DNA of 64,000 bases from contig NZ_CP073063.1 in NCBI RefSeq assembly GCF_022654015.1, forward strand, positions 992,001 through 1,056,000, in the 5' to 3' direction. The position numbers and the translations under genes were made by a program. This stretch comes from Brevundimonas diminuta (GTDB taxonomy: Bacteria; Pseudomonadota; Alphaproteobacteria; Caulobacterales; Caulobacteraceae). Positions within the stretch are counted from its first letter, which is position 1, and each line of letters starts with the position of its first letter. Below are positions 1-19,449 of this stretch, piece after piece. A model generated the notes under the pieces. It worked only from the letters and a program-made list of their open reading frames with translations, was not told the DNA's origin and searched no databases.

Positions 1-1
1 C

Positions 2-3363: not shown

Positions 3364-3455
3364 GAAGCTTGAGTGTGCGGCGGCGGGTTTGGTTTCAAGT
3401 CGGCGCCTTCGGCTCAGCCTCGTCAGCCACGACAAAGCCGGTTATCGTCCGCCCC

Positions 3456-3629
3456 ATGAAACGGCTTACCCCCTTCGGCGTCCTGCTGATCTTCGGCCTG
3501 ATTGGGCTTTTGACGGGCAAGTTCGGCCTGTGGTTCGCGTTCGGCCTGGTCGCCTGCATCGCCGTCAGCGTGATGCAGAACCGGGGCGCGGCCAAGACGC
3601 CGCCCGGGGATCCAGACAGTCAGGGTTAG
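3456..3629 (+). CDS. Small membrane protein, unknown function
   Basis: 57 residues starting at the ATG at 3456. Residues 6-43 are almost wholly hydrophobic with one break around GKFG, fitting two short membrane helices or a hairpin, followed by a hydrophilic tail rich in Pro, Asp and Gly. It lies between the divergent hydrolase and the convergent ABC-F gene. The overlapping reverse frame is not protein-like. No family is recognised. The call rests on composition and a sensible start, so it is tentative. Confidence 0.5.
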   Translation: MKRLTPFGVLLIFGLIGLLTGKFGLWFAFGLVACIAVSVMQNRGAAKTPPGDPDSQG

Positions 3630-3671
3630 GACCTCAAGCCGTCCTCGCCAGGGTGACGAGCCGTTCGGTCT

Positions 3672-5489
<1,818 letters not shown>

Positions 5490-5592
5490 GGGCGGCCATA
5501 TAGATGAGGGGAAGGCCAACCGCCATCGGCGTTGACGGTTAGCGGCCGACACGGTGTAGTTCGTGCGCGGTTTGCACGCGGGGGATGCAGGG

Positions 5593-6180
5593 ATGGATAT
5601 GACGTCGAACGGACGCGGGGACGCCCCAAAACGAAAGCCGGGGCGGATCTTCTATCTGCTGGCCGCGCTGCCGGCGATCTGCGGGATCGTGGCGATGGTC
5701 GTGCTGCTGGCGACGAAACTGCCGGCGCTGGACGACGGGCTGGAGCAGATCGTCGTGCCGGGCGGCCGCGATCTGGCCTTGAAACCGGGCGACCACACGG
5801 TTTTCCTCGAATACCGCAGCGTCGTCGATGGGCGGGTCTATGTCGTCGAGGACGTGAACGGACTGGCGGTGAAGGTCCAGGCCGCGGATGGAACGGCGGT
5901 GCCGACGCGGACGCCAGGCGCCAGCTCGACCTATACGTTCGGCGGACGGCAAGGGCAGTCGATCCAGGCGTTCCGCATCGACAGGGCCGGGACCTACCGC
6001 GTGTCGGCGGATTACGACGGCCGTGATGGGCCGCAGGCCGTGATCGCCGTGGGGCGGGGCTTCATGACCGGGATGTTTGTGACCATCCTGTCGGCGCTGG
6101 GGGCGTTCTTCGGCGGTGTATTCCTGTCGGTCATCGGCATCGCCTGGGTGGCCTGGAGCCGACGGCGGACACCGCGCTGA
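5593..6180 (+). CDS. Predicted membrane protein, two transmembrane segments, unknown function
   Basis: 195 residues from the ATG at 5593 (an ATG two codons later is also possible). One hydrophobic helix is near residues 20-43, followed by about 110 hydrophilic residues predicted to be beta-rich and probably periplasmic, then a second helix near 160-187 and a short basic tail. A segment of the form GTYRVSADYDG suggests a small beta-sandwich. No family is recognised. It stands divergent from the ABC-F gene, about 100 bases away. Confidence 0.7.
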   Translation: MDMTSNGRGDAPKRKPGRIFYLLAALPAICGIVAMVVLLATKLPALDDGLEQIVVPGGRDLALKPGDHTVFLEYRSVVDGRVYVVEDVNGLAVKVQAADGTAVPTRTPGASSTYTFGGRQGQSIQAFRIDRAGTYRVSADYDGRDGPQAVIAVGRGFMTGMFVTILSALGAFFGGVFLSVIGIAWVAWSRRRTPR

Positions 6181-6199
6181 CCTTGGCAACGAAGGCGGA

Positions 6200-6227
6200 T
6201 TGACAGTTACCGTCCGGTTGGTATGTA
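6200..6227 (+). promoter_or_regulatory. Promoter with embedded palindrome, probable autoregulated tetR-SMR promoter
   Basis: TTGACA at 6200-6205 is followed after 16 bases by TATGTA at 6222-6227. Between them lies the palindrome ACCGTCCGGT (6209-6218), a common core in TetR-family operators. The predicted transcription start, 6-8 bases after the -10, falls on or next to the ATG at 6234. The regulator would thus block its own promoter. Both halves are inferred by eye. Confidence 0.5.
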
Positions 6228-6233
6228 GCGGAG

Positions 6234-6812
6234 ATGGACAGCACCACACGCCGTCGCGCGCCCGACGACACCCGCGCCGAGATCATTGAAAAAGCCCTGG
6301 AGGTCGCCGCCGAGCTGGGGGCGTCAGGCTTTACGCTGGATGCGGTGGCGGGGCGGACGAGCGTCAGCAAGGGCGCCCTGCTGCATCATTTCTCCAGCAA
6401 GATCGCGCTGTTGGAGGGGATGGTCGATCATCTGGGGCGGATGCATACGGACACGATTCTGGCCGAGGCGGCACGCGATCCCGAACCCTATGGCCGGAAT
6501 GCGCGGGCCTATCTTAGGGCGACGGTCAATGAGCCGGTGACGCCGCAGGACGTCAGCATCGGAAGGGTCATCATGGCCGCCTGCGCCATCGATCCGGCGT
6601 TGGCGCAACGCTGGAACGGCTGGATCGACAAGGTGAAGGTGGACGATCCCAGCGATCCGGTCGGGGCGGACGATGCCCTGATGCTGAGGCTGATCGCCGA
6701 CGGCTTGTGGATGTCGGACCTGTTCGGCACCCATGCGGTGTCGCCGGAACAGAGACAGGCGCTGCTGTCGCTGCTGACGCCCGGCCATCCGATCACGGCG
6801 AACGACGCATGA
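6234..6812 (+). CDS. TetR/AcrR family transcriptional regulator
   Basis: 192 residues. The N-terminal helix-turn-helix (about 14-60) has the TetR signature with FTLDAVAGRTSVSKGALLHHF. The remainder is the helical ligand-binding and dimer domain, whose ligand is unknown. The stop overlaps the start of the SMR exporter gene (ATGA at 6809-6812), so the two are translationally coupled and the regulator most likely controls that exporter. A GGAG sits directly against the ATG, too close to serve as a normal ribosome site; the message may be leaderless. Confidence 0.92.
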   Translation: MDSTTRRRAPDDTRAEIIEKALEVAAELGASGFTLDAVAGRTSVSKGALLHHFSSKIALLEGMVDHLGRMHTDTILAEAARDPEPYGRNARAYLRATVNEPVTPQDVSIGRVIMAACAIDPALAQRWNGWIDKVKVDDPSDPVGADDALMLRLIADGLWMSDLFGTHAVSPEQRQALLSLLTPGHPITANDA

Positions 6813-7147
6813 GTCTCGTGACGTGGGCCGCGCTGCTGGGCGCCATCGCGCTGGAGGTGGCGGGCACGACGATGCTGCAGGCCTCGCAGCAGTTCACCCG
6901 GGTCTGGCCCACGGCGGGGATGGCGGTCTGCTACGCCCTCGCCTTTTACCTGCTGTCGCTCGCCTTGCGGCAGATGCCGGTTGGGATCGCCTATGCGATC
7001 TGGAGCGGGTTGGGGGTGGTGCTGATCTCGGTGATCGGAACGGTGGTGTTCCGCCAGCGGCTGGACCTGCCGGCCATGGTCGGGCTGGCGCTGATCGTCG
7101 GCGGAGTGGCGGTGATCAACCTGTTCTCCAAGACCGTCGGGCATTGA
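6809..7147 (+). CDS. Small multidrug resistance (SMR) family transporter
   Basis: 112 residues with four hydrophobic helices, the standard size for the EmrE/SugE family. The conserved membrane Glu used in proton-coupled drug binding is at position 16 (GAIALEVAGTT). The family motif around Pro and Gly in helix 2-3 (MPVGIAYAIWSGLGVV) is present. SMR proteins are inner-membrane antiporters for quaternary ammonium cations or guanidinium. The conserved WSG motif does not by itself separate the drug-type from the guanidinium-type subfamily. It is coupled to the TetR gene by a four-base overlap. Confidence 0.92.
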   Translation: MSLVTWAALLGAIALEVAGTTMLQASQQFTRVWPTAGMAVCYALAFYLLSLALRQMPVGIAYAIWSGLGVVLISVIGTVVFRQRLDLPAMVGLALIVGGVAVINLFSKTVGH

Positions 7148-7187
7148 GGCTGTGACAAGCGACGGCGCGGCGCGTATGAGGCGCGCC

Positions 7188-7643
7188 ATGCAGCCCTACT
7201 GGGAAACCAAGACCCTGGCCGAGATGTCGCCTTCCGAGTGGGAGGGCCTGTGCGACGGGTGCGGGCTGTGCTGCGTGATCCGGTTCGAGGACGAGGATAC
7301 GGGCGAGGTCATTCCGACGCGGGTGCACTGCAAGCTGTTCGATCCGGAGGCCTGCGCCTGTTCGGACTATGCGAACCGCAAGGCCCAGGTGCCGGACTGC
7401 ATCAAGCTGACGCCCGGCAATATCGAGGCGTTGGAATGGATGCCCAAGTCGTGCGCCTATCGCCGGCTGCACGAGGGGCGGCCGCTGGCGAAATGGCATC
7501 ATCTGATCTCGGGCAGTCGCGAGACGGTGCATACGGCGGGCGTGTCGGTGCGGGGCCAGACGATTTCGGAGCTGTCGCTGGCCGAGCCGGAGGATGCGCT
7601 GGATTTCGAGGCGCCGGAATGGGCGGTCGAGCGGGGCCGGTAG
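7188..7643 (+). CDS. YcgN/UPF0260 family cysteine-cluster protein
   Basis: 151 residues from the ATG at 7188, chosen because family members begin close to the PYWETKTL motif; an ATG at 7176 and a GTG at 7152 are possible. The N-terminal Cys cluster LCDGCGLCC (about 22-30) and later Cys residues (HCKLFDPEACACSDY, VPDC, KSCAYR) are the UPF0260 pattern, related to YkgJ zinc/iron-chelating proteins. The molecular role of the family is not established. Monocistronic by position. Confidence 0.87.
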   Translation: MQPYWETKTLAEMSPSEWEGLCDGCGLCCVIRFEDEDTGEVIPTRVHCKLFDPEACACSDYANRKAQVPDCIKLTPGNIEALEWMPKSCAYRRLHEGRPLAKWHHLISGSRETVHTAGVSVRGQTISELSLAEPEDALDFEAPEWAVERGR

Positions 7644-7765
7644 TGATAGGGTAGCACCCCCTAGCCAGCGCAATGACGCTGGTTGAAAGGCTGCGAAAAC
7701 AATCCGTTGGCGAATTATGTGAGCGTTCTTCCGGCCTGAGGACGCTGGTCCGCTATGGTTTGGGC

Positions 7766-8203
7766 ATGACGGGAAATCAGGACGACGAAGAGAGCGGCTG
7801 CGGCGCGCGCGAGACGGCTGCGTCTTGCGCGGGGTGGATGGAGCCCCTGTTCCTGATGATGAAGGCCAAGATCGAGGAGACCGCGAAGAGCGTCTGCGAG
7901 ACCGACGTCAAGGACGCCGCCGTCGCCGAAAAGGTCGCGCGCCAGATCGGGGTGATCGCGCGGTCGGCCAAGGCGGTCGAGGCGATGCGGCTGCTGTGCC
8001 TGAGCGACAACGAAGAGGACGAGATGGGTGGACGAACCTACGACCCCGCCGAGGACGAGCGAATCCGAAGAGAACTGCTCGTTGAATACGCGCGGCTTGA
8101 TCGAATTCTGGAAGAGAAGAACGCCGAAGCTGCTGAAAGAGCGCGAGCTAAGGCTGCATCGCAATCACTGTCGGCTGGCGAAGCATCAGTTTCCGCCGAC
8201 TGA
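7766..8203 (+). CDS. Putative GTA small terminase (g1-like)
   Basis: 145 residues from the ATG at 7766; an ATG at 7673 would add a poorly protein-like extension. It is acidic and helical with a charged coiled-coil tail, and lies directly upstream of the large terminase, which is the position of g1 (small terminase) in alphaproteobacterial GTA clusters. Residues about 25-80 (WMEPLFLMMKAKIEETAKSV and following) resemble a helical DNA-recognition region. Identification rests mainly on position. Its last 176 bases overlap the terminase large subunit gene in another frame. Confidence 0.6.
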   Translation: MTGNQDDEESGCGARETAASCAGWMEPLFLMMKAKIEETAKSVCETDVKDAAVAEKVARQIGVIARSAKAVEAMRLLCLSDNEEDEMGGRTYDPAEDERIRRELLVEYARLDRILEEKNAEAAERARAKAASQSLSAGEASVSAD

Positions 8204-9347
8204 CGACGACCTGAAGACCTGGCTGCTGCTGGGCGGCCGGGGATCGGGCAAGACCTTCGCCGGGTCGGTCTGGATCGACATCATGGCGCGAGAGCTGCCC
8301 GGCATCACCCTGGCCCTGGTCGGCCCCGCCCTGCACGATGTGCGCGAGGTGATGGTGGAGGGGGCGTCGGGGATCAAGGCGCTGGCGGAGCCGGGCGACC
8401 GCCCGCGTTGGGAGGCGGGGCGGCGTCGGCTGGTTTGGGACAATCAGTCGGCCGCCTACGCGTTTTCGGCCGAGGATCCCGACAGTCTGAGGGGGCCGCA
8501 GTTTCACGCGGCCTGGGCGGACGAGTTCTGCGCTTGGCGGCGGCCGGAGATGGTGCTGTCGAACCTGAGGTTCGGGTTGAGGCTGGGGGCCTCGCCGCTG
8601 CTGGCGGTGACGACGACGCCCCGGCCGATCCCGGCGCTGAGGCGGTTGATGGCCGAGGCGGGGACGGTGACGGAACGGGCGGCGACGGCGCTGAACGCGC
8701 AGAACCTGTCGCCCGGCTTTCTGGCGCATCTGAACGACGTCTATGGCGGGACGCGGCTGGCGGCGCAGGAGCTGGAAGGCGTGGTGGTCGAGGGCGAGGG
8801 CGCCCTGTTCCGCATTGCGGACCTGAAGCGGGCCAGGGGCGCGCGGCCGGCCGAACTGGACCGGATCTTCGTGGCGGTCGATCCGCCGGCGACCGCGACC
8901 GGAGACGCCTGCGGCATCGTGGTGGTCGGGCGAAAAGGTCGCCAGGCCTTCGTGCTGGCCGACCGGACGGTGCAGGGGCGCTCGCCCCAGAGCTGGGGCG
9001 GGGCCGTCAGCGCGGCGGCGCACGAATTCGGCGCGCACGAGGTGGTCGCCGAGAGCAATCAGGGCGGCGACATGGTGCGCTCGGTCCTGGCCATCAGCGC
9101 CTGTCCGTGCCGGATCGAGATGGTCCACGCCTCGCGGTCCAAGGCGGCGCGGGCCGAGCCGGTGGCCCTGCTCTACGAACAGGGGCGGGTGGTCCACTGC
9201 GACGCCTTCCCGGCGCTGGAGGAAGAGATGCTGGCGCTGGGCAGCGAGGGCGGACCCAGCCCGGATCGGGCCGACGCCCTGGTGTGGGCGATCACGCGGC
9301 TGATGCTGGGGCCGCAGTCGGCGGGACCGCGGTTGCGGGGGCTTTAG
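8028..9347 (+). CDS. GTA/phage terminase large subunit (g2-like)
   Basis: 439 residues from a GTG at 8028, preceded by an AG-rich stretch. Later TTG codons would shorten the overlap with the upstream gene, so the start is uncertain. Walker A is LLLGGRGSGKT (about 67-77) and Walker B is in FHAAWADEFCAW. The C-terminal half is the RNase H-like nuclease with acidic residues in FVAVDPPAT and PDRADALVWA. This is the DNA-packaging motor that fills the prohead; GTA versions package random host DNA. The gene appears intact although downstream capsid genes are broken. Confidence 0.92.
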   Translation: MDEPTTPPRTSESEENCSLNTRGLIEFWKRRTPKLLKERELRLHRNHCRLAKHQFPPTDDDLKTWLLLGGRGSGKTFAGSVWIDIMARELPGITLALVGPALHDVREVMVEGASGIKALAEPGDRPRWEAGRRRLVWDNQSAAYAFSAEDPDSLRGPQFHAAWADEFCAWRRPEMVLSNLRFGLRLGASPLLAVTTTPRPIPALRRLMAEAGTVTERAATALNAQNLSPGFLAHLNDVYGGTRLAAQELEGVVVEGEGALFRIADLKRARGARPAELDRIFVAVDPPATATGDACGIVVVGRKGRQAFVLADRTVQGRSPQSWGGAVSAAAHEFGAHEVVAESNQGGDMVRSVLAISACPCRIEMVHASRSKAARAEPVALLYEQGRVVHCDAFPALEEEMLALGSEGGPSPDRADALVWAITRLMLGPQSAGPRLRGL

Positions 9348-9379
9348 AGCCTCAAGATTTCAACGACAGGAGAGACGAT

Positions 9380-9667
9380 ATGCCGGCCATTCCGGAGCGG
9401 GACGGATTGCTGAACCATGGGCGCGACGCGGGCGGGCCGGCGAGGCGCGCGGCGTCAGTGACGCCCAACGATGCGGCCGATCTGACGATCTATGCGAAGG
9501 CGCTATACGTCGGTGGGGCAGGCAATGTCCGCGTGCTGACGGTCGGGGCTGAGGACGGGGACGCCGTGACCTTCGCCAACCATCCGGTGGGGTGGTTGCC
9601 GGTTCAGGTGCGCCGGGTGCTGGCGACCGGGACGACGGCGACGCAGATCGTGGCGGCCTTCGACTGA
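9380..9667 (+). CDS. Spike base protein, Rhodobacter GTA Rcc01079-like
   Basis: 95 residues, preceded by the ribosome site AGGAGAG. Short beta-rich protein with the pattern DLTIYAKALYVGGAG then VTFANHPVGWLPVQVRRVLA and a C-terminal TGTTATQIVA. I recognise this as the small spike-base family typified by Rcc01079, a head-spike component of the R. capsulatus GTA. The stop overlaps the ATG of the next gene (TGATG at 9665-9669), coupling it to the SGNH hydrolase. In R. capsulatus the spike genes lie away from the main cluster; here they are between terminase and portal. Confidence 0.65.
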   Translation: MPAIPERDGLLNHGRDAGGPARRAASVTPNDAADLTIYAKALYVGGAGNVRVLTVGAEDGDAVTFANHPVGWLPVQVRRVLATGTTATQIVAAFD

Positions 9668-10794
9668 TGTCGGGTGTCGAGATCGCAGCGGCGACGGCGG
9701 CGCCGGGCGGGGTGCTGGGGAGGGCGCGGTTTTCCGTGCCCGACCTGCCCGTCTGGTCGGCAGCGGTCAGGACCATGCAGGCGGGTGGGCGCGAGGCGCG
9801 GCTGCTGTGCATCGGCGACAGCGTGACCCAAGGTTATGGCGCGGTCTCCGGAGGCTGGACGCCGAACGGTCGGGCGAGCGCCTGGCCCGAGCGGCTGGCG
9901 GCGATGATGAGCGCGCGGGGCCTGCCGGCCTCGGCGGCGTCGGTCGCGGGCGCGGGGGCGGCGGATGGGGCGAGCGGAGGCTATTCGGCCTATGACCCGC
10001 GCGTGACGATGGGCGCCGGCTGGAGCGTCAACGCCCTGACCGGGATGGGCGGCAAGCTGTTTTCAGGCGCGGCGTCGTCGACGGGCGTCTGGAGTTTTCA
10101 GCCGGACGGGCCGGTCGATCGGTTCGACCTGTGGGCCGTAACCAATACGGCGCTGGGCGTGCTGACGGTCGAGACGGACGGGTTGGTGCGGGCGACGGTG
10201 AACACCACCAAGGCGGCGTCGATGGAGGTTGCGACCGTGGCCTTTCCCGAGACGACCGGGCCGGTGAGCGTGCGCTGGGCCTCGGGCGGGGCGGTGTTCA
10301 TCGCGGGCGGGATCGCGTGGCGCTCGGACGTGCGCCGGACGCGGGTGATCAACGCCGGGTGGGGCGGGGCCCGGATCGCGGACTGGATCACGACGGATCA
10401 GCCGTACCGGGCCTATGGATCGATCCCGGCGGCGGCGCCCGATCTGTCCGTCGTGTGCCTGACCATCAACGACTGGAATGCGGGCACGGCGGTCTCGACC
10501 TACAAGGCCGGGCTGGGGACGCTGGTGGATCGGTGCCTGACGACGGGGGACATTCTGCTGATGACGGGCTGTCCGTCCGACCCGGCCCAGGGCAAGGCGA
10601 GCTATGCCGCGCAAGCCGCATTGCGGGACGCGGTGTTCGAGGTGGCGGCGACGCGAGGGTTGGCGGCGCCCATCGACGGGACGGCCCTGTTCGGCGGCAG
10701 TTTCGCCAGCGGTCTGATGTTCGATTCCGTCCATCCCAATGCGGCGGGCCAGGCGAGGATCGCCGAGGCGGTGCGGGCGCGGATGATGATCTGA
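9667..10794 (+). CDS. SGNH/GDSL hydrolase, putative particle spike or fibre esterase
   Basis: 375 residues. Block I GDSVTQGYG carries the catalytic Ser (about residue 51). The Gly/Asn blocks are in VINAGWGGA and CLTINDWN, and the Asp-His pair is in DSVHPNAAG near the C-terminus, so all four SGNH blocks are present. Between blocks I and II a beta-rich insert of roughly 130 residues looks like a carbohydrate-binding or jelly-roll module. There is no signal peptide. Translational coupling to the spike-base gene suggests the product is carried on a particle and removes acetyl groups from surface polysaccharide. That role is an inference. Confidence 0.75.
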   Translation: MSGVEIAAATAAPGGVLGRARFSVPDLPVWSAAVRTMQAGGREARLLCIGDSVTQGYGAVSGGWTPNGRASAWPERLAAMMSARGLPASAASVAGAGAADGASGGYSAYDPRVTMGAGWSVNALTGMGGKLFSGAASSTGVWSFQPDGPVDRFDLWAVTNTALGVLTVETDGLVRATVNTTKAASMEVATVAFPETTGPVSVRWASGGAVFIAGGIAWRSDVRRTRVINAGWGGARIADWITTDQPYRAYGSIPAAAPDLSVVCLTINDWNAGTAVSTYKAGLGTLVDRCLTTGDILLMTGCPSDPAQGKASYAAQAALRDAVFEVAATRGLAAPIDGTALFGGSFASGLMFDSVHPNAAGQARIAEAVRARMMI

Positions 10795-10832
10795 GGTTGG
10801 CGCGCGCGCTCGTGCGATGGTAACCGTGGCGG

Positions 10833-11882
10833 ATGGGGGAGCGGTTCCACGGGGTGCAGGCGCTGCGGTTCGCGGCGGCGACGGCGGTGGTCGTCACGCA
10901 CGCCGTGGACCTGGCGGGGACGCGGCTGGGGCTGGAGACGGCGCTCACGCACGGTAGTTTGGCCGGCGGCACGCTGGAGAACTTCGGCGCCATGGGCGTG
11001 GACGTCTTCTTCGTCATCAGCGGCTTCATCATCGCCACGACGACGCAGGGGCAGACGGGTGTGGGCGCGGCCGGGGCCTTCCTGTGGCGGCGGTTTCGGC
11101 GGGTGGCGCCGATCTACTGGCTGCTGTCGCTGCCGATCCTGATCGGCATGGCGCGGGGCGGGACGCTGAGCCCGGAGGTGGCGGCGGCGACGTTCCTGTT
11201 CTGGCCATTCAGCGGACTGGAGATGACGTTTCCTGCGCTGGGGCCGGGGTGGACCCTGTGTTTTGAAATGCTGTTCTACGCCGGGTTCGGGCTGGCCATG
11301 GCGGGCGGCCGTCGGTTCGGCTTTGGGCTGGTCGGGGCCTATGCGGCGATGCTGGCGGCCGGATTGGTCGTGGCGGCGCCGGTTCTGAGGTTCTGGGGCG
11401 CGCCGATCATTCTGGAGTTTCTGCTGGGCGTGGGGATCGCCTGGGTGTGGCGGTCGGCGCCGCGTCGGCTGGGGGTGTGGGCGGTCGGTCTGGCGATGCT
11501 CGGGTTCGGGCTGGGCCTGGTCTTCGGCTATGGCGGCGTCGACGATGTGCGGGCGTTGAACGATCCGTGGAACGGGTTGAGGCGGGCAGCGGTCTGGGGG
11601 TTGCCCAGCGCGCTGCTGGTGTTCAGCGTGGTGCGGATGGAGCGGACGGACCGGGCGCCGGGACGGCTGTCGCGGGCGGCGGCCTTCATGGGGGATGCGT
11701 CCTATTCGATCTATCTGGTCCATGTGCTGGTCATCCGCGCGCTGGGGCGCATGTTCGAGAGCGGGATGGTGGCCCCGCCGGGGGATGCGGTGGTGGGGCT
11801 GACCGTGATCGCTAGTCTGGCGGCGGGGGCGGTCGTGCATGTGTGGATCGAGCGGCCGCTGTTGCGGCTGATGACGCCTTAA
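10833..11882 (+). CDS. Acyltransferase 3 family membrane protein (OafA-like)
   Basis: 349 residues with about ten hydrophobic helices. The N-terminus GVQALRFAAATAVVVTHAVD and the following VDVFFVISGFI are hallmark motifs of the acyltransferase-3 family, with the catalytic His in the first helix region (VVVTHAVD). Members move acetyl or succinyl groups onto exported polysaccharide, O-antigen or peptidoglycan. It follows the SGNH hydrolase by 38 bases on the same strand inside the GTA cluster, pairing an O-acylating enzyme with a likely O-deacylating one. Confidence 0.87.
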   Translation: MGERFHGVQALRFAAATAVVVTHAVDLAGTRLGLETALTHGSLAGGTLENFGAMGVDVFFVISGFIIATTTQGQTGVGAAGAFLWRRFRRVAPIYWLLSLPILIGMARGGTLSPEVAAATFLFWPFSGLEMTFPALGPGWTLCFEMLFYAGFGLAMAGGRRFGFGLVGAYAAMLAAGLVVAAPVLRFWGAPIILEFLLGVGIAWVWRSAPRRLGVWAVGLAMLGFGLGLVFGYGGVDDVRALNDPWNGLRRAAVWGLPSALLVFSVVRMERTDRAPGRLSRAAAFMGDASYSIYLVHVLVIRALGRMFESGMVAPPGDAVVGLTVIASLAAGAVVHVWIERPLLRLMTP

Positions 11883-11907
11883 AGACACCGCCCTTTGCTT
11901 CACACGC

Positions 11908-12003
11908 CGTCATCCTAGGCCTTGTGCCTAGGATCCATAGAACACCGGACTTAAGCGGCGAGCACCGTGAGTATGGGTCCTCGGGACAAGCCCGAGGATG
12001 ACG
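11908..12003. repeat. Intergenic inverted-repeat element
   Basis: Two 32-base arms, 11908-11939 and 11972-12003, are inverted copies that match at most positions. Each arm is itself a small hairpin: TCCTAGGCCTTGTGCCTAGGA on one side and TCCTCGGGACAAGCCCGAGGA on the other. The 32-base centre shows no gene. It fills the gap between the acyltransferase and portal genes. The form is that of a dispersed REP/MITE-like palindrome; copy number cannot be judged from one window. It may also act as a terminator. Confidence 0.7.
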
Positions 12004-12025
12004 AAACTAAAAGGAAATCGACACG

Positions 12026-13198
12026 ATGGTTTCGATCCGGTGGCCGTTCGGCCAGGCGGGGCGCGTGCGCGCGCCTGAGGGCAAGGAGAGCCGGGCGGGC
12101 GGGGTGATCGCCTTGTCGGGGGTGGGACGGCCGCGGTGGACACCCAACGACTACGCCAGCCTGGCGCGCGAGGGATATCAGAAGAATGCGGTGGCCTATC
12201 GCTGCATCCGCATGATCGCCGAGGCCGCGGCGGCTGCGCCGTTCGTGGTGTTTGTGGACGGGGTGCGGAGCGATGATCATCCGCTGGCCAAGCTGATCCG
12301 CAGGCCCAATCCCGAGCAGTCGGGGGCGGAGCTGATGGAGGCGGTCTATGGCGCGTTGCAGGTGTCGGGCAACGCCTATGTCGAAGCGACCGGGGATGCG
12401 GACGGGGACGGGGCGCCGGACGAGCTGTGGGCGCTGCGGTCGGATCGGGTGAAGGTGGTTCCGGGCCGCTCGGGCTGGCCCGAGGCGTGGGATTATTCCG
12501 TAGACGGACGGTCGGTGCGGATCGGGCGGGCGGCCGACGGCTGGGCGCCGGTGATGCACCTGAAGCTGTGGCACCCGCTGGACGACTGGTACGGGCTGTC
12601 GCCGCTGGAGGCGGCGGCGCAAGGGGTGGATGCGCACAATGCGGCCGGCGCCTGGAACAAGGCCCTGCTGGACAATGCGGCGCGGCCGTCGGGGGCGCTG
12701 GTCTATGGGGCGCGGAACGGCGAGCGGCTGACGGACGGACAGTTCGAGGCGCTGAAGGATCAGCTGTCGTCCGTCTATGCCGGGGCGACAAACGCCGGGC
12801 GGCCGATCCTGCTGGAAGGCGGGATGGACTGGAAGCCGCTGAGTCTGACACCGGCGGAGATGGATTTCACGGCCGGAAAACATGCGGCGGCGCGCGAGAT
12901 CGCCCTGGCGTTCGGGGTGCCGCCGCAGCTGCTGGGGATACCGGGCGATGCGACCTACGCCAACTATCGCGAGGCCAATGCGGCCTTCTGGCGACAGACG
13001 GTGATCCCGCTGGTGAAGAAGGCGGCGGGGGCGATGACGGGTTGGCTGGGCGAGCGGTTCGCGGGATGCGAGATCCGCGCGGACCTGGATGCCGTCTCGG
13101 CGCTGCAGCCCGAGCGGGACGCCCTGTGGGCGCGGCTGGAGGCGGCGAGCTTCCTGACGGACGAAGAGCGTCGGCGGATGGCGGGGTTGGGGGCATGA
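12026..13198 (+). CDS. GTA/HK97-type portal protein (g3-like)
   Basis: 390 residues, the usual length for GTA portals. The N-terminus with GYQKNAVAYRCIRMIAEAAA, the segment HPLAKLIRRPNPEQSGAELM and the later FGVPPQLLGIPGDATYANYREA are the HK97-family portal motifs. The portal forms the dodecameric ring through which terminase loads DNA. Its stop overlaps the next start (ATGA at 13195-13198). No frame damage is visible. Confidence 0.92.
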   Translation: MVSIRWPFGQAGRVRAPEGKESRAGGVIALSGVGRPRWTPNDYASLAREGYQKNAVAYRCIRMIAEAAAAAPFVVFVDGVRSDDHPLAKLIRRPNPEQSGAELMEAVYGALQVSGNAYVEATGDADGDGAPDELWALRSDRVKVVPGRSGWPEAWDYSVDGRSVRIGRAADGWAPVMHLKLWHPLDDWYGLSPLEAAAQGVDAHNAAGAWNKALLDNAARPSGALVYGARNGERLTDGQFEALKDQLSSVYAGATNAGRPILLEGGMDWKPLSLTPAEMDFTAGKHAAAREIALAFGVPPQLLGIPGDATYANYREANAAFWRQTVIPLVKKAAGAMTGWLGERFAGCEIRADLDAVSALQPERDALWARLEAASFLTDEERRRMAGLGA

Positions 13199-13425
13199 CC
13201 GAACATCATATCCGGCGCGTGCCGACGGCGCTGCTGATCGCCGTCGTGGTGCAGACGGTGGGCGGCCTAGTCTGGGCCGGGGGCGCCGCAGCGCGGATCG
13301 CGACGTTGGAGCAGCGGGTCGGGGAACAGAGGCTGGTCGCCGAACGACTGGCGCGGCTGGAGGTCCAGGGCGAGGCGACGGCGGCGGCGGTGGAGCGGAT
13401 CGAGCGTAGGTTGGAGGGGAAATGA
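13195..13425 (+). CDS. Small membrane-anchored GTA cluster protein (g3.5-like)
   Basis: 76 residues. One hydrophobic helix at about 10-32, then a coiled-coil tail with regularly spaced Leu, Val and Glu. Position between portal and protease, with four-base overlaps on both sides, matches the small unnamed gene between g3 and g4 in GTA clusters. No enzymatic motif is present and the function is unknown. Confidence 0.7.
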   Translation: MTEHHIRRVPTALLIAVVVQTVGGLVWAGGAAARIATLEQRVGEQRLVAERLARLEVQGEATAAAVERIERRLEGK

Positions 13426-13828
13426 GCGCACTGGCCATCGAAGGCTACGCCTCCCTGTGGGGCGTGGCGGATCTGAACGGGGACGTGGTGCAGGCGGGGG
13501 CGTTTGCGGACAGTCTGGCCAAGACGGGGCTGAAGGGGTGAGGATGCTGAATCAGCACGATGCGCGGGCGCCGGTCGGGGTCTGGGAGCAGATCGTCGAG
13601 GATGCGCGCGGCCTGTTTGTGCGCGGCCGGATCGAGGACTGGTCGGCCGAGGCGCGGTTCGCCGGGGCGCTGAGCCGGGCCGGGGCGCTGGACGGGCTGT
13701 CGATCGGCTACCGCACAGCGCGGGCCCGGCGTCAGGGACGGCTGCGCGTGCTGAGCGCGGTCGAGCTGTGGGAGGTGTCGCTGGTGACGTTTCCGATGCT
13801 GCCGGGGGCCCGGTTCAGTTCGGTTTGA
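13422..13828 (+). pseudogene. GTA prohead protease (g4-like), interrupted by a one-base frameshift
   Basis: The ATG at 13422 overlaps the previous stop. The first frame reads 39 residues (MSALAIEGYASLWGVADLNG at the start), typical of the HK97 prohead protease N-terminus, and ends at TGA 13539-13541. The rest continues in another frame from about 13540: VRMLNQHD, the diagnostic protease motif with its catalytic His, then ARGLFVRGRIE and LSIGYRT, through ELWEVSLVTFPML to the stop at 13828. Adding one G to the GGGG run at 13535-13538 restores a continuous product. So it is a pseudogene, a sequencing error or, less likely, a programmed frameshift. The enzyme would cut the capsid scaffold domain. 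Confidence 0.82.
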
Positions 13829-14027
13829 GGGTCGGGCAGAGACTTGGAGACGACGACGGCCGGAGGCGCATCCGTAGTCTCTCCGCAATGCTGACCCGGC
13901 ATGACACGCACGGCCACTGCGGGCCCGGCATCGGATCGTCTGGGATGAAAGAACAATCCAAACACGGCGCCTCCCCTTCTAACTTTGAGTTGGGAAGCGA
14001 AGCCGGAGCCGCAAAGCCTTGCCAGTT

Positions 14028-14846
14028 TCAGTTTGGCTTGAGGGCTTGGAAGGCGCCGTTGCGGTCGAGGGTTTCGGCGAGGGCGGCCATCTGGGCGCGG
14101 CCCTTCTTGCCGTGGAGATAGCGCAAGGCCCAGCCGGCGAGCACCAGGCCGAAGATCCAGCCGACGTGCAGCACCAGGTGGGCGAACAGGATGAAGACGG
14201 CCGCCAGCGCATAGGCGCCGAGATAGACCAGGGCCAGTTGGCCGCCGCGCGAGGCCGTGGGGTTGGACAGGCCGGCGATCATCTCGGCCAGGCTCGGTGC
14301 CGCGGCGGCGGACGGCAGGGCGTGGTCGGAGGGCTTTGAAGCCGGCTGGGGCGCCGGTTTGGATTGCGCTTTCGGCGCGACCTGGGCGGCGGGCGCAGCG
14401 GCCGGTCGGGCGGCGGGTTTGGGCCTGGGCGAGATCGGATCCGGCGTGCGCCGGGCGGGGCGGAACAGGATCGAGCGGCCCGTTTCGTCGACGGTGAAGA
14501 CCTCTTCGAAGGCGGTGGTCGAGAAGTCGATGTCGCGGGTGTCCTGGCCATAGCTTTGGCCGTGCAGGGCCGTCAGCCGGCCTTGGCGCAGCTCGATCTG
14601 GAAGCCGACCGGGTCGGCCAGGCCGGCGATCATCGCATGGACCGTGCCGAACAGGCCGGTGGCGTCCGGGTTGGCGATCGCGCGGTCCGCATCGACGACG
14701 ATCTGGGAATAGAGGCCTGCGCCGGTGTTGCGACGCAGGCCCGGCGAACTGGCGGCGACCTGGGCGCGCAGGTCCGGCACGCTGTCGCCCATCTGCCAGA
14801 TCATGGCGTCCATGACGGCGCTTTCGAGGGGCGTCAGGTGGGACAT
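14028..14846 (-). CDS. Unrecognised protein with C-terminal membrane segments, inserted in GTA cluster
   Basis: 272 residues in the opposite direction to the GTA genes. Residues 1-125 form a globular acidic domain. A Pro/Ala/Lys-rich linker follows (about 130-185), then two hydrophobic helices near 203-242 and a short basic tail. The end of the first domain contains STTAFEEVFTVDETGRSILF. No family is recognised. It separates the protease from the capsid remnant, so it arrived by insertion. About 200 bases between it and 13828 show no gene. Confidence 0.72.
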   Translation of the reverse strand: MSHLTPLESAVMDAMIWQMGDSVPDLRAQVAASSPGLRRNTGAGLYSQIVVDADRAIANPDATGLFGTVHAMIAGLADPVGFQIELRQGRLTALHGQSYGQDTRDIDFSTTAFEEVFTVDETGRSILFRPARRTPDPISPRPKPAARPAAAPAAQVAPKAQSKPAPQPASKPSDHALPSAAAAPSLAEMIAGLSNPTASRGGQLALVYLGAYALAAVFILFAHLVLHVGWIFGLVLAGWALRYLHGKKGRAQMAALAETLDRNGAFQALKPN

Positions 14847-14856
14847 GGGGAGGGCG

Positions 14857-15496
14857 TCACAGAGCAGGGAAGGGGCGACGACCGGAAGCTTTCGCCTCAG
14901 CGACGTAGTGATCGTTCATCTTGCGCAGCTGTGCTCGAAGGAAAAGCAGCAAGGCCAGTACAAACAAGGTCGTGAAGACAGGCCAATACGGGATGGTCGG
15001 TATCCCCAAGTGGCGGCTCAGGAAACCCAGCGGGTCGCGCAAGCCCGCCACCGCGCAGAACATGATCCACACGGAAATGGATACTACGTCGATCACGTTG
15101 TCGGTCGTTTTGGAAGGCGGAGCTCCCCATCGCGCGATCAACGCCTGAATGGAGCGTGGCACGGTTTCGACAGGCGGTTTCTTGGTGATGAGCAGGAATT
15201 CGCCGAGAGGAACAGGATCGAGTTCTTGCGATGTCTGAAGACGCTGTAGCGGCGACAGGCGACGCGCAAGAGCGCGCCGTTTGCGACGTGCGACGAAGGC
15301 GAGGCCATATTGAAGGCCCAAGGCGCCAAAGATCGCCAACACAGGCAATGCATAGACGATTTCGGGAACCGACCACTTCGTAGTGGTTCAAGACGGCGAC
15401 GGCCGTTAGCGGTACGAACGGCGCCCATATCCAGACGAGCTTGAGCAGCCAGGAGCGCTGCAAACCGTCCAATAATTTCGAGATCGTGTCGGTCAC
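14857..15496 (-). pseudogene. Four-helix membrane protein, frameshifted
   Basis: A GTG at 15496 opens a frame giving about 39 residues with one hydrophobic helix (LVWIWAPFVPLTAVAVLNHY). At about 15372-15387 the sensible sequence moves to a second frame, WSVPEIVYALPVLAIFGALG, which continues to the stop at 14857 with a basic loop and two more helices. The second frame has a stop just upstream of the switch, so the halves cannot both be separate full genes. The switch coincides with a short palindrome, ACCACT-TCGT-AGTGGT. One base removed here would restore about 212 residues. No family is recognised. It lies just upstream of the neighbouring reverse gene. Confidence 0.6.
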
Positions 15497-15541
15497 GCCT
15501 CGACCCTAACCGCAACACGCGGTTCTTCAACCGGAGATATC

Positions 15542-16220
15542 ATGAAAGAGACCAAACAGGCTTCCGGCTCGCCGGAGGCGCGCGATGTCGTGCGCGAGAT
15601 GATGGCGGCGTTCGAGGCGTTCAAAGGGGAGAACGACGCCCGGCTGGGCGAGATCGAGAACAAGGCGGCGGCCGATGTGCTGCTGGAGGAGAAGGTGGCG
15701 CGCATCGACCAGGCGGTCGCCTCGGCCCAGGCGCGGCTGGATCGGGTGATGAGCCAAAGCCGTCGCCCGGCGATCGGCGGCGAACCGGCCGAGCCGGCGT
15801 CTGCGCCCGAGGCGAAGGCGGCGTGGGACGGCTATTTGAAGACAGGTCAGTCTGGCGCGCTTGAGGTCAAGGCGGGCCTGTCGGGCGGCGCGACCTCGGG
15901 CGGCTATGTCGTGCCCTATGAGACCGAGCGGGCCATCGAGCGGCGTCTGATGGCGGCCAGTCCGATGCGCGAGATCGCCACGGTGCGCACGGTCGCGGCG
16001 GGCGTGTTCCGTAAGCCGGTGTCGACGGCGGGCGTGGCCTGCCGCTGGGTGGCGGAGACGGCCGCGCGGCCCGAGACGGACCCGGCGACCCTGGCCCTGC
16101 TGGACGACGCCATGGTCGATCTGGACGGATTGCCGGAGCCAAGGTCGCCCTCGCGGCGCGGGAGATTCAGCTTTCGTCAACGTCGACGGGTTGAACAACC
16201 CTAAGGGCCTGCTCTCCTAT
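15542..16220 (+). pseudogene. GTA major capsid protein (g5-like), internally deleted and 3'-truncated
   Basis: The ATG at 15542 follows a CGGAGA ribosome site. The N-terminal coiled-coil delta domain and the start of the HK97 fold (SGGATSGGYVVPYETERAIE, then SPMREIATVRTV) are well preserved. After AETAARPETDPATLA the usual stretch around the P-loop is missing and the frame jumps to LLDDAMVDLDG. Then at least two small indels follow. In other frames one can still read VALAARE and AFVNVDGLNNPKGLLSY up to about 16220, where the reverse-strand DUF805 gene begins. Two thirds or more of the capsid fold is gone, so no capsid can form from this copy. The annotated open frame stops at 16204. Confidence 0.8.
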
Positions 16221-16930
16221 TCGCCCTTCGGGTTCGGGCCGAAGCGGTTTTCGCCCTTCTGGCTGTCGGCGATGCCGATCCACAGCAGGAAGGCCAGGCC
16301 CAGCAGACCAGCGATGGCGAACAGGCCGAAGGCGGGGCCCATCAGGGCGAAGACGGCGGCCGGGTTACCCTCGTAGTAGTCTTCCGAATAGCCGTTGGCG
16401 ACGGCGGCGGCGACGACCATGGCGAAGCCGGCGAAGAAGGCCACGACCGAGCCGACCCAGGGAATGGCGATCAGCCAGCCGGTCTTGCCCATGTCGTGCA
16501 GGCGCTTCACCGAAATGGCCAGGTTGGGCCAGATCAGCACGATGCCGAGCAGGTTGATGAAGGGGATCCAACTAATGACGACGTTGACGCCCAGCAGGAT
16601 CAGCCAGCCGATCCAGAAATGGCTGCGGCGGACGCGGCCCTCGAAGGACAGGAACAGCTTCTGCCAGTCGAAGCCGGCGACGGCGGTCGAGGTCGAGCTG
16701 GCGTAACCGCCGGCGACGCCGGTGGTGGTGGGAGAACCCGCCAGGATCAGGATCTGGGTGGCGGCTGAGCCCTCGGGCACGAAGTCGACGCGGACGCCGG
16801 CGGCGGGCACGGCCGGCGATTGCAGCGCGGCCGAGGTGAAGTCGTAACGGGCGCCGTCGTCGCCGCTGATCAGACCGACGCCGGTCGTGGCGTCGTAGCT
16901 GAGAATTTCACCGCGCACTGAGATCTCCAT
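16217..16930 (-). CDS. DUF805 membrane protein with N-terminal cold-shock-like domain (copy A)
   Basis: 237 residues. The first 65 or so (RGEILSYDATTGVGLISGDD then RYDFTSAAL) look like a small OB/cold-shock-type fold. The remainder is DUF805: a helix after SFEGRVRRSHFWIGWL, further helices, and the family motif LAISVKRLHDMGKTGWL. DUF805 proteins are inner-membrane proteins of unknown role. The stop lies exactly at the end of the capsid remnant. A paralogue with the same architecture follows upstream on the same strand (16997-17656). Confidence 0.85.
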   Translation of the reverse strand: MEISVRGEILSYDATTGVGLISGDDGARYDFTSAALQSPAVPAAGVRVDFVPEGSAATQILILAGSPTTTGVAGGYASSTSTAVAGFDWQKLFLSFEGRVRRSHFWIGWLILLGVNVVISWIPFINLLGIVLIWPNLAISVKRLHDMGKTGWLIAIPWVGSVVAFFAGFAMVVAAAVANGYSEDYYEGNPAAVFALMGPAFGLFAIAGLLGLAFLLWIGIADSQKGENRFGPNPKGE

Positions 16931-16996
16931 GACTGGCGCCCAAGCCGGCGCGGCGGCAACATCGCCGACCCGTGCAATCCCAGCAACCCGAAAAGG

Positions 16997-17656
16997 TCAA
17001 GCTGGCCGATCCTGACGCGTTTGTAATGCGCGCGACCCCTTGGGCGGCGCGCCGTGGACGTTCGCTTCGGGTTGCGAGGGTAGAAGGCTGACGATGAAGG
17101 TGAACAGGCCGCCGACATAGGGGACGAGGCCGATCAGGATCAGCCAGCCGCTGAGCCCGACATCATGGAAGCGGCGGATGGATACGCAGACGTAGGGAAC
17201 GATCAGCGCGAAATACACCAGGGCGACGATGCAGATCCAGGCGACGCCCCAGGCCTCCATATCGTAGCCGGCCTCGGCGTCGAGGACGGCCAGACCGATG
17301 ATCGGCATGAAGGCGAGCATCAGGATCAGGAAGTGGAACAGGGCGAAGGACCAGTATTCCTTTCGCCGCGCCCGACCGTGGCCTTCGATATAGAGGTCGG
17401 AGATGCAGCGGACGAAATAGCCCCATAGGCCCAGGTCCGGTTCGGGGGCGTATACGGCCGGCGCCAAAGGGCCGTCGCGCAGGACCATCAGGCTGAGCGC
17501 CTGGTCGTCCTGAACCACGAAATCGACGCGGCGGCCGGGTTCGAGACCGGCGGCGGCCGAGGTGAAAGCATAGCGCTGCAAGTCGTCGCCGCTGATCAAC
17601 CCCTCGCCGGTCGTCGGATCGTAGCTGAGAATTTCGCCGCGCAAGGCCGTGTCCAG
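16997..17656 (-). CDS. DUF805 membrane protein with N-terminal cold-shock-like domain (copy B), start uncertain
   Basis: Paralogue of the neighbour at 16217-16930: RGEILSYDPTTGEGLISGDD and RYAFTSAAA, then the DUF805 part with ARRKEYWSFALFHFL and CVSIRRFHDVGLSGWL. By alignment to copy A the start should be at 17656, but that codon is CTG rather than ATG and no ribosome site precedes it. In-frame TTG (17644, 17743) and GTG (17713) exist; the outer two run into GTA remnant sequence. Copy B may therefore have lost its start at the insertion border, or use a rare codon. About 219 residues from 17656. Confidence 0.72.
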   Translation of the reverse strand: MDTALRGEILSYDPTTGEGLISGDDLQRYAFTSAAAGLEPGRRVDFVVQDDQALSLMVLRDGPLAPAVYAPEPDLGLWGYFVRCISDLYIEGHGRARRKEYWSFALFHFLILMLAFMPIIGLAVLDAEAGYDMEAWGVAWICIVALVYFALIVPYVCVSIRRFHDVGLSGWLILIGLVPYVGGLFTFIVSLLPSQPEANVHGAPPKGSRALQTRQDRPA

Positions 17657-17728
17657 GAAAAACGCGGCGTCGGCGCCGCCGCCAAGGTGTGGACCGCGCG
17701 GGCGGCATTGCACAACAGGAGAGTGTTC

Positions 17729-17960
17729 ATGGGCGCCTTTCAAGAGGTGCGCCTGCCCGCGCGGCTGGCGTTCGGTTCGACCGGCGGGGTGGAGCGTCGG
17801 ACGGAGATCACGACGCTGGCGTCGGGGTTCGAGCGGCGCTCCACGCCCTGGGCGCTGGGGCGCAGGCGGTATCTGATCGGGGCGAACCTGAGGTCGCTGG
17901 ACGACATGGCCGAGCTGGTCGCCTTCTTCGAGGCGCGGCGGGGTCCGTCGTGGTGTTTCT
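17729..17960 (+). pseudogene. GTA distal tail protein gene (g12/DUF2460-like), 5' fragment
   Basis: The ATG at 17729 has a good AGGAGA site at 17717-17722. The first 77 or so residues are the N-terminus of the DUF2460 family: FQEVRLPARLAFGSTGGVE, then RRTEITTLASGFERR and LDDMAELVAFFEARRG. DUF2460 is g12 of GTA clusters, the distal tail protein. Homology ends near 17960, where the usual C-terminal two thirds are missing and a different gene end takes over in another frame. Confidence 0.78.
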
Positions 17961-18432
17961 GGACGATCGGCTGGCGCGCGCGGAGATCGGGCGGAGCGAG
18001 CGAGGACTGCCGCTGGTCTGTCGCGCGGGGCCGGCTGGCGCGGCGCCGGGTGGAGCGGGGTTCAGCGACGCCCTGTTCGTGGCGAGGGGCGTGCATGATC
18101 GGCCTTGGTCGCCGTCTAGTCTGACGGTCGAGACGTCGGCCGAGGGTCTGGCAATCCGTTGGACGCCGCGTGCGCGGCTGTTCGGCGATGGCTGGGACGG
18201 GGAACCGACAGCGGTCGATCCGATGCGGTTCCGGCTGCGTGTGCGGGACGGAGATGTCGTGGTGCGGACAATGGAGGTGGAGGGCGTGTCGGGCTTCTAT
18301 GCAGCGGCTGACTTGGCGGCGGACTTCCCAGAAGGCGCGACATCGATGGCGCGGATCGCCGTGGCGCAGTGGGGCGAAGGGTTCGGGTGGGGCTCAGAAG
18401 CAGAGGTGGAGGCGGAAATCCGGCAGGTCTGA
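17955..18432 (+). pseudogene. GTA baseplate (megatron, g15-like) gene, 3' fragment
   Basis: From about 17955, in the third-position-shifted frame relative to the g12 piece, the translation reads LARAEIGRSERGLPL, then HDRPWSPSSLTVETSAEGL, IRWTPRARLFGDGW and FRLRVRDGDVVVRTMEVEG, ending at 18432. This pattern is what I know as the C-terminal end of the large GTA host-interaction/baseplate protein (g15): a fibronectin-like segment with a W-x-R-R/A-R-x-x-GD-W core. The protein is normally over a thousand residues; only about 158 remain. A deletion has fused the start of g12 to the end of g15, removing the genes between. Confidence 0.68.
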
Positions 18433-18522: not shown

Positions 18523-19449
18523 GTGGCAGGCGACCCCTACAAGGAACTGGGCGTTTCGAAGGGCGCGAGCGCGGACGAGGTCAAGAAGGCGTATCGCAAG
18601 CTCGCCAAGGAGCTGCATCCCGACAAGAACCCCGGCGACAAGATCACCGAGGACAAGTTCAAACGGGTGACGGCAGCCTTCGACATCCTGGGCGACAAGG
18701 AAAAGCGCGCCAAATACGACGCGGGCCAGATCGACGGCGACGGCAACGAACAGTATCGCGGCTTCGGCGGGGGCGGTCGCGCCGGCGGCAACCCGTTCGG
18801 CCAGGGCGGCAATCCGTTCGGACAAGGCGGCGGGCCGGGCGGCCGCGCCAACTTCGAAGGCGTTGATCTGGACGATCTGTTCGGCATGTTTGGCGGGGCC
18901 GGGCGTCAGCGCGGCGCGCGGGACTTCACCTCACGCGGCCAGGACGTGAAGGCGACGCTGGACATCAGTCTGGAAGACGCCATCGCCGGGGCGACGCGGC
19001 GGATCCAGTTCTCGGATGGACGCACTCTGGACGTGACCATTCCCAAGGGGGCGTCGGAAGGCCAGACGATCCGCCTGCGCGGCCAGGGAGCGCCGGGGCG
19101 CGGGGCCGAGAACGGCGACGCCCTGATCGAACTGAGGATCGAACCGCACCCCATCTACAAGCGCGACGGGGCGGACCTGACGATGGACCTGCCGGTGTCG
19201 GTGCCCGATGCGGTGCTGGGCGCCAAGGTGCGAGTGCCGACGCCCGAGGGCGTGGTGCAGATGACGCTGCCGGCCGGATCGAACTCGGGCAAGGTGCTGA
19301 GGCTGAAGGGGCGCGGCGCGTTTGCGCAAGGTAGGCGCGGCGATCTGCTGGCGCGGGTGATGGTGACGCTGCCCGATACGCCGGACGCCGAACTGACCGC
19401 CTTCGCCGAGGATTGGCGGGCCAAGCGGCCCTATACGCCGGGGCGGTGA
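18523..19449 (+). CDS. DnaJ-family co-chaperone, CbpA-like (class II)
   Basis: 308 residues from a GTG at 18523. The J domain is at about 4-70 with the HPD motif (LHPDKNPGD) that stimulates DnaK ATPase, then a Gly/Phe-rich linker with repeated NPFGQGG units. The two C-terminal substrate-binding beta domains follow, with DVKATLDISLEDAIAGATRR and VTIPKGASEGQTIRLRGQG. The zinc-finger repeats of true DnaJ are missing, as in CbpA/class II proteins. It follows the GTA remnant by 90 bases; no heat-shock promoter was identified in front. Confidence 0.9.
   Translation: MAGDPYKELGVSKGASADEVKKAYRKLAKELHPDKNPGDKITEDKFKRVTAAFDILGDKEKRAKYDAGQIDGDGNEQYRGFGGGGRAGGNPFGQGGNPFGQGGGPGGRANFEGVDLDDLFGMFGGAGRQRGARDFTSRGQDVKATLDISLEDAIAGATRRIQFSDGRTLDVTIPKGASEGQTIRLRGQGAPGRGAENGDALIELRIEPHPIYKRDGADLTMDLPVSVPDAVLGAKVRVPTPEGVVQMTLPAGSNSGKVLRLKGRGAFAQGRRGDLLARVMVTLPDTPDAELTAFAEDWRAKRPYTPGR

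What the first reader, a model, noticed from the sequence alone, without database searches (positions are those of the whole stretch)
7766..18432. Gene transfer agent cluster caught mid-decay
The order terminase small, terminase large, portal, small membrane protein, protease, capsid, distal tail, baseplate is that of alphaproteobacterial GTA clusters. Packaging genes and portal remain open and well formed, while protease, capsid and tail genes are frameshifted, truncated or missing and foreign genes fill the gaps. The connector, tube and tape-measure genes are wholly absent. The intact DNA-packaging end could be conserved by chance or retained for another use.
Basis: partly seen in the sequence, partly recalled or inferred. 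Interest (0 to 1): 0.7.

Follow-up and report, generated by a model that had tools for sequence, protein, structure and literature searches.

The report
Recently broken gene transfer agent cluster
A Brevundimonas-type bacterium carries the wreck of a gene cluster that once made virus-like DNA-carrying particles; internal deletions have broken it, close relatives still have the whole cluster, and other relatives have lost it in different ways.

Summary
Window 7766-18432 is an RcGTA-type gene transfer agent (GTA) head-tail cluster at the genus's usual site upstream of dnaJ, in a one-contig genome without a second copy of TerL, portal, capsid, g13 or megatron. The protease is frameshifted, the capsid truncated, g6-g11 and g13-g14 are gone; only the start of g12 and the tail of the megatron remain.

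Two readings fail. The "foreign genes" are not gap fillers: 9380-10794 are GTA head-spike genes, and the acyltransferase and DUF805 genes also sit inside near kin's complete clusters. The gaps are deletions of about 3.2 and 4.85 kb. Special retention of the packaging end gets little support: broken pieces and open genes alike stay near their background omega, so breakage is mostly recent; in 18 deleted clusters of the genus the edges tend to survive and the middle goes, and TerL is undetected in 7 of 18.

GafYZ candidates, ComEC and DprA are present, which fits a recent non-producer. Pseudogenised GTAs are already known in print. The repeated, partly coincident deletions are the interesting part.

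The parts
7766..8203 (+). putative small terminase (TerS), 145 aa; an upstream start at 7673 is possible; overlaps TerL
   Evidence: position and size only; no Pfam, PHROG, NCBIfam or PDB hit; conserved in kin
8082..9347 (+). TerL, open; start codon uncertain
   Evidence: Terminase_6N/6C; omega 0.025 on this branch
9380..9667 (+). GTA head spike base (Rcc01079 family), open
   Evidence: NF048002 E=1.6e-25; PDB 6tb9 Rcc01079 E=3.8e-7
9667..10794 (+). SGNH/GDSL protein in the place of the spike fibre (fibre role inferred), open
   Evidence: Lipase_GDSL_2 and PHROG tail protein; also in kin clusters
10833..11882 (+). acyltransferase 3, resident passenger gene, open
   Evidence: PF01757; same place in kin clusters
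12026..13198 (+). portal (g3), open
   Evidence: PF04860; Rcc01684
13195..13425 (+). small membrane protein (g3.5 position), open
   Evidence: ORF, and conservation in kin
13422..13541 (+). prohead protease g4, 5' piece; frame broken in a G run
   Evidence: sequence; tblastn in two frames
13457..13828 (+). prohead protease g4, 3' part in the other frame
   Evidence: Peptidase_S78 positions 50-152
14028..14846 (-). resident passenger gene, open
   Evidence: same place in kin; no Pfam hit
14857..15496 (-). second minus-strand passenger gene, frameshifted near 15372-15377
   Evidence: 211-aa open gene in G039, two frames here; not found in G068, G048, G062, G002
15542..16204 (+). major capsid g5, truncated; 54-bp deletion near 16098-16104 and two smaller deletions
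16218..16226 (.). junction of a deletion of about 3.1-3.3 kb (capsid 3' part to tape measure g11)
   Evidence: against G068, G039 and G048
16217..16930 (-). DUF805 protein, resident gene of the genus's clusters
   Evidence: PF05656; present in kin
16997..17743 (-). second DUF805 protein
   Evidence: PF05656; present in some kin, absent in G068 and G062
17731..17943 (+). distal tail protein g12, first ~70 codons
   Evidence: DUF2460 in the frame 17687-18124; no PDB hit for this piece
17934..17943 (.). junction of a deletion of about 4.85 kb (g12 to megatron)
   Evidence: against G068, G039 and G048
17944..18432 (+). megatron g15, last ~160 codons
   Evidence: NF048004 1139-1297/1299; RcGTA chain 6tba_8A 1162-1296/1304
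18523..19449 (+). dnaJ, the right-hand neighbour of the GTA site
   Evidence: PF00226, PF01556

Best explanation
It is the remnant of an RcGTA-type GTA head-tail cluster, inactivated mostly recently on this species' own branch by internal deletions. What is left is the two edges of the cluster (terminase, spike and portal on the left, megatron tail on the right) plus resident passenger genes. No particle is expected without capsid, connector, tube, tape measure and hub. The activator candidates GafYZ and two DNA-uptake genes remain, so the lineage is best read as a GTA non-producer that may still receive DNA. Shown: homology, synteny with complete clusters of kin, the deletions, no other copies found, presence of gafYZ candidates, comEC and dprA families. 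Inferred: survival of the edges by chance, loss of production, ability to receive.
For: GTA identity. Complete clusters at the same site in kin: (e.g. G068, about 93-94% identical DNA over its long aligned stretches). Deletion junctions. No other copies. Pooled broken fragments (499 codons): omega on this branch 0.105; the range with 2 delta lnL below 3.84 is about 0.05 to 0.21; omega 1 is worse by 35.8. If unconstrained time has omega 1, at most about 15% of the branch was unconstrained (my arithmetic). Edge survival in 18 deleted loci against 12 complete ones. GafZ candidate (DUF6456) and GafY-like gene. ComEC and DprA families.
Against: One 125-nt capsid stretch after the 54-bp deletion is only about 79-81% identical to its six nearest kin, gaps counted, while those kin are 96-98.5% identical to G068 there. 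That suggests older decay of that piece, a mutation-rich repair event or recombination, and is unexplained. TerL and TerS on this branch have lower omega than background (2 delta lnL 5.0 and 5.2; single genes, uncorrected), which leans towards retention rather than neglect. Production and reception were not tested.
Confidence: 0.85

Rival explanations
1. The packaging end (TerS, TerL, spike, portal) is kept by selection for a new use after loss of the capsid and tail.
For: All are open frames; omega on this branch is low for TerL (0.025, background 0.087) and TerS (0.037, background 0.229).
Against: Broken fragments also show low omega. Among 18 deleted clusters the first half of TerL is under 30% coverage in 7 and portal in 8, while the megatron tail is kept in 17. 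Near kin G039 has a TGA inside TerL.
Confidence: 0.07
2. It is a defective ordinary prophage, not a GTA.
For: HK97-type head genes; relatives of the portal occur in 1676 phage records.
Against: The best-ranked phage portal is 50% identical; RcGTA portal, capsid, spike base and megatron are the best PDB hits; a portal relative is in 107 of 120 relatives' genomes, and complete clusters lie at the same dnaJ-flanked site in the kin examined.
Confidence: 0.03
3. Some or all breaks are assembly or sequencing errors.
For: The protease break is a single frame break in a G run.
Against: One-contig genome, 99.99% complete; two deletions of about 3.2 and 4.85 kb, with the genes looked for (capsid rest, g13, megatron) found nowhere else; several separate lesions including a frameshifted passenger gene.
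Confidence: 0.04

Closest known systems
RcGTA head-tail cluster of Rhodobacter capsulatus (g1-g15)
   Same: gene order, and homologous portal, capsid, protease, distal tail, megatron and head spike base
   Different: here g6-g11, g13, g14 and most of g15 are deleted; the spike genes lie inside the cluster after terL (recalled: in R. capsulatus they lie elsewhere)
Caulobacter crescentus GTA (CcGTA) with GafYZ/RogA control (PMC9632790 and PMC11150451, passages seen)
   Same: split GafY/GafZ-like genes side by side in the genome
   Different: CcGTA makes particles; this cluster is not expected to
Pseudogenised or lost alphaproteobacterial GTAs, proposed as possible 'cheater' lineages (PMC10883770, passages seen)
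   Same: broken GTA genes in a genome whose relatives have the cluster
   Different: here deletion junctions, fragment omega and a genus-wide retention profile are given

Membership tests
remnant of an RcGTA-type GTA cluster | conserved head-tail gene order TerL-portal-protease-capsid-...-g12-g15 | tested here: met
   surviving parts are in this order; full order in kin at the same site
remnant of an RcGTA-type GTA cluster | structural proteins nearer to RcGTA than to phages | tested here: met
   PDB searches; best-ranked phage portal 50%; no phylogeny of phage and GTA portals was made
remnant of an RcGTA-type GTA cluster | complete cluster in close relatives, lesions in this genome, no second copy | tested here: met
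working RcGTA-type GTA | complete set of structural genes | tested here: not met
   g6-g11, g13, g14 absent, capsid and megatron truncated
working RcGTA-type GTA | GafA or GafYZ activator in the genome | tested here: met
   DUF6456 at G000:C1:965823-966224 and adjacent DnaA-C-like ORF; the DnaA-C score (28.9) is under Pfam's cut-off (31.5)
working RcGTA-type GTA | particles that package random host DNA | not testable with these tools
   needs an experiment
GTA 'cheater' (receives but does not make) | uptake intact while production is lost | tested here: inconclusive
   ComEC and DprA families present, but most control genomes have them too; receptor and uptake not tested

The most novel reading that the evidence does not exclude
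GTA loss in Caulobacterales is frequent and stereotyped: certain deletions recur at the same places because similar short DNA words lie inside conserved protein motifs. Three genomes of different genera (G099, G193, G119) joined TerL at its AAW-D motif to the megatron at its LW-D motif, where the two genes share words like TGGGC-GACG; and in the window's genus several deletions end within about 15 codons of each other, some 160 codons before the megatron stop, leaving the DNA upstream of dnaJ in place. The activator genes can outlive the structural genes, so the genus may be rich in fresh non-producer lineages. Probability lowered from 0.45 to 0.35 on rechecking: exact counts at seven junctions of the genus give only 0, 1, 5, 0, 2, 1 and 6 shared bases, two of them from poor alignments.
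Probability: 0.35. Interest if true: 0.6.

Novelty: new member of a known kind. Interest (0 to 1): 0.4.

Why it matters
How a lethal, group-beneficial trait such as GTA production persists is an open question (so stated in PMC10883770, passages), and the rate and route of its loss is a key unknown. This genus offers at least 18 clusters with differing deletions among 131 species genomes (a lower bound, since not every locus was read). Four of them (G000, G300, G301, G252) are about 93-96% identical in DNA, over their long aligned stretches, to kin that keep most or all of the cluster. Loss rate, order of loss and the fate of non-producer lineages could be measured there.

Tried and rejected
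Retention for a new use: tested by branch omega and by the retention profile; little support. In one search the one-omega fit for DUF805b did not converge (2 delta lnL 765) and that row is dropped; g12N had no change on the branch among the nearest kin and says nothing by itself, but it is in the pool. One search was the same analysis and timed out after one gene; one search was the same profile as with a wrong option and gave zeros.

Exapted truncated megatron: five genomes whose GTA locus lacks portal and capsid (G038, G099, G103, G119, G193) keep open frames of about 800-1000 aa of the megatron's C-terminal part. For G193 only the locus was read, not the whole genome. I considered a domesticated protein. 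The tree places four of them with complete copies of their own genus or family (G119 with support 73 inside a family group of 100); G103 has no genus mate there. In the four that I scanned (not G193) the cut lies inside the GTA TIM barrel (Pfam positions from 29, 69, 72 and 98 of 299). I favour separate deletions; how recent each is was not tested.

The decayed set: the 18 were picked by hand from hits and from reading loci. Left out: G028 (runs of N), G039, G044 and G256 (frameshifts only), and loci cut by contig ends. The 12 'complete' clusters are complete by coverage; frames were not checked in all, one search was cut in display, and its protease alignments of G002 and G012 run over one stop. 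TerL 'undetected' in G268, G286, G293, G297 and G247 could in part be replacement by a divergent terminase; not tested.

Microhomology at the window's junctions: BLAST overlaps of 4 to 10 nt shrink to 0 exact bases at the 4.85-kb junction with G039; by eye CGGGG is shared with G048 and TAT at the 3.2-kb junction with G068. So a repeat-driven mechanism for the window's own deletions is not shown.

Other unproductive calls: coordinate errors (4, 7, 8, 12, 13), a search term too short (46), a region one base too long (59), junction pattern not found in genome contigs (76; the window's own record may be left out there).
Full report
What is there. The window lies in a one-contig genome of 3,209,446 bases, 99.99% complete. 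It belongs to a genus whose named members are Brevundimonas: portal relatives at 85-98% identity include records of B. vesicularis, B. huaxiensis, B. intermedia and B. aurantiaca; the window's own record was not named. Family scans give TerL, spike base, SGNH protein in the place of the spike fibre, acyltransferase, portal, S78 protease, HK97 capsid N-terminal part, DUF2460 start and the last ~160 residues of a GTA megatron. PDB searches place the portal, capsid, spike base and megatron tail with the RcGTA particle; the SGNH protein's only hit is an esterase; the protease and g12 pieces and the presumed TerS found nothing.

Comparison with kin. Blastn of the locus against 20 fetched relatives and tblastn of GTA proteins against the same 20 and the window (display cut) show complete clusters at the same site in close kin. 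For G068 and G048 most long aligned stretches are 90-97% identical to the window. Matching contig lengths suggest that they are Brevundimonas sp. ASV9 and B. vesicularis NBRC 12165. The spike genes, acyltransferase, the minus-strand gene 14028-14846 and one or both DUF805 genes sit inside those complete clusters too. They are residents, and the window's gaps are deletions.

The lesions. Relative to G068, G039 and G048: 54 bp in frame and two smaller deletions in the capsid; about 3.1-3.3 kb from the capsid 3' part to the tape measure, joined at 16218-16226; about 4.85 kb from g12 codon ~70 to the megatron tail, joined at 17934-17943; a frame break in a G run of the protease; and a frameshift in a minus-strand passenger gene at about 15372-15377. 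No second copy of portal, TerL, capsid, megatron or g13 was found in the genome.

When. For terL+portal+TM it gives 0.035 against 0.056. Fragments and open genes were both constrained for most of the branch; breakage is recent, and dN/dS cannot show special retention. Two results point the other way. TerL and TerS alone are nominally below background. And the 125-nt capsid stretch beyond the 54-bp deletion is about 79-81% identical, gaps counted, to its six nearest kin, which are 96-98.5% identical to G068 there; I cannot explain that stretch.

Is the packaging end special? Survey of 120 relatives, own genome counted apart: a match at E <= 0.001 for TerL in 111, portal in 107, megatron (first 1063 residues) in 102, capsid in 101, g13 in 92 of 120; weak matches to other prophages are included. 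In the genus, a megatron C-terminal query matches 126 of 131 genomes, the window's own among them. From the loci read I took 18 clusters with deletions, the window's among them, all with differing breakpoints, and 12 complete ones. Genomes holding at least 30% of the complete clusters' coverage: TerL first half 11 of 18, portal 10, protease 11, capsid 8, g6-g9 3 to 4, g10 and g11 5, g12 7, g13 3, g14 2, megatron first fifth 2, last fifth 17. Both edges survive and the middle goes, as internal deletions between functional neighbours would give. The right edge survives more often than the left (17 v 11 of 18, Fisher p=0.04), perhaps because it carries sequence needed by dnaJ; that is inference. 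Bias: the set was gathered partly by megatron hits, so loci lacking the tail would be under-represented; 5 of 131 genomes lacked a hit.

Near the window, G300, G301 and G252 are deleted too, and G039 has a stop in TerL and a frameshift in g15. The left ends of these deletions differ from the window's, but the right end of G300's megatron deletion lies within a few bases of the window's, so a shared older event is not wholly excluded for that end.

Recurrent junctions. G193 came from a family survey (121 of 137 genomes matched). In G099, G193 and G119 TerL residue ~171 is joined to megatron residue ~474. A tree of the megatron C-terminal part places G099 with G198 and G193 with G194 (both 100% support), and G119 within its family, so the joins are best read as independent. 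The megatron site reads TGGGCCGACG in G198 and TGGAGCGACG in G194; TerL reads TGGGC-GA-GA in four other genomes held. Only G119 joins in register at the shared word; G099 and G193 are shifted and have lost bases. The TerL of the true parents was not held. In the window's genus several deletions (G000, G300, G011, G025, G031, G293) end near megatron codon 1060-1075. Exact shared bases at seven junctions of the genus are 0, 1, 5, 0, 2, 1 and 6 (G300 and G252 aligned poorly), so repeat-driven deletion is a hypothesis there. The truncated proteins cut the TIM barrel, which argues against a domesticated product. The dnaJ neighbour is seen beside GTA genes or remnants in other genera too, e.g. G099, G103, G119, G193, G091, G097.

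Regulation and uptake. A DUF6456 protein (GafZ candidate; of 14 control genomes the search rings only in Caulobacter vibrioides) is open at 965823-966224 with a DnaA-C-like ORF (GafY candidate, just under Pfam's cut-off) beside it, about 34 kb upstream of the cluster. ComEC and DprA families are present, as in most control genomes. That fits the idea in PMC10883770 (passages) that pseudogenised GTAs may be recent cheater lineages; it does not test it.

Print. Searches, judged from listings and from passages of a few papers, showed no paper describing this cluster or these junctions. PMC10883770 (passages) states that pseudogenisation and loss of GTAs occur in multiple alphaproteobacterial lineages; PMC6821227 (passages) lists RcGTA-like clusters in 78% of Caulobacterales OTUs; PMC9836097 (passages) says that GTA clusters lie predominantly in GC-skew peaks. 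Only open-licence PMC papers were searched.

Noticed in passing
window 7001-15000: GC skew is raised over most of the GTA block (0.16-0.24 per kb at 7001-15000, against 0.05-0.11 at 1-7000), as PMC9836097 describes for GTA clusters.
   Followed up: no
window 11905-12005: A repeat-looking stretch with inverted-repeat character (judged by eye) sits just before the portal gene.
   Followed up: no
L032:4160-4375, L033:6790-7000, L036:8390-8500: Kin clusters carry roughly 80-190-bp GC-rich, inverted-repeat-looking intergenic inserts at varying places that the window lacks; they recall the repeated terminators reported in the Caulobacter GTA cluster (PMC11150451, passages).
   Followed up: partly
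window 16098-16222: This capsid stretch is about 79-81% identical to nearest kin that are 96-98.5% identical to one of them there.
   Followed up: partly
L095:9757-12370, L069:8323-10933, L068:8173-10770: Three genomes of different genera share the same TerL-megatron deletion junction to within a few bases.
   Followed up: yes
L083:8699-11056 (G028): The megatron of G028 appears split between two distant places, its 3' part with dnaJ-serC-purA; runs of N elsewhere in the cluster make a scaffolding error possible.
   Followed up: no
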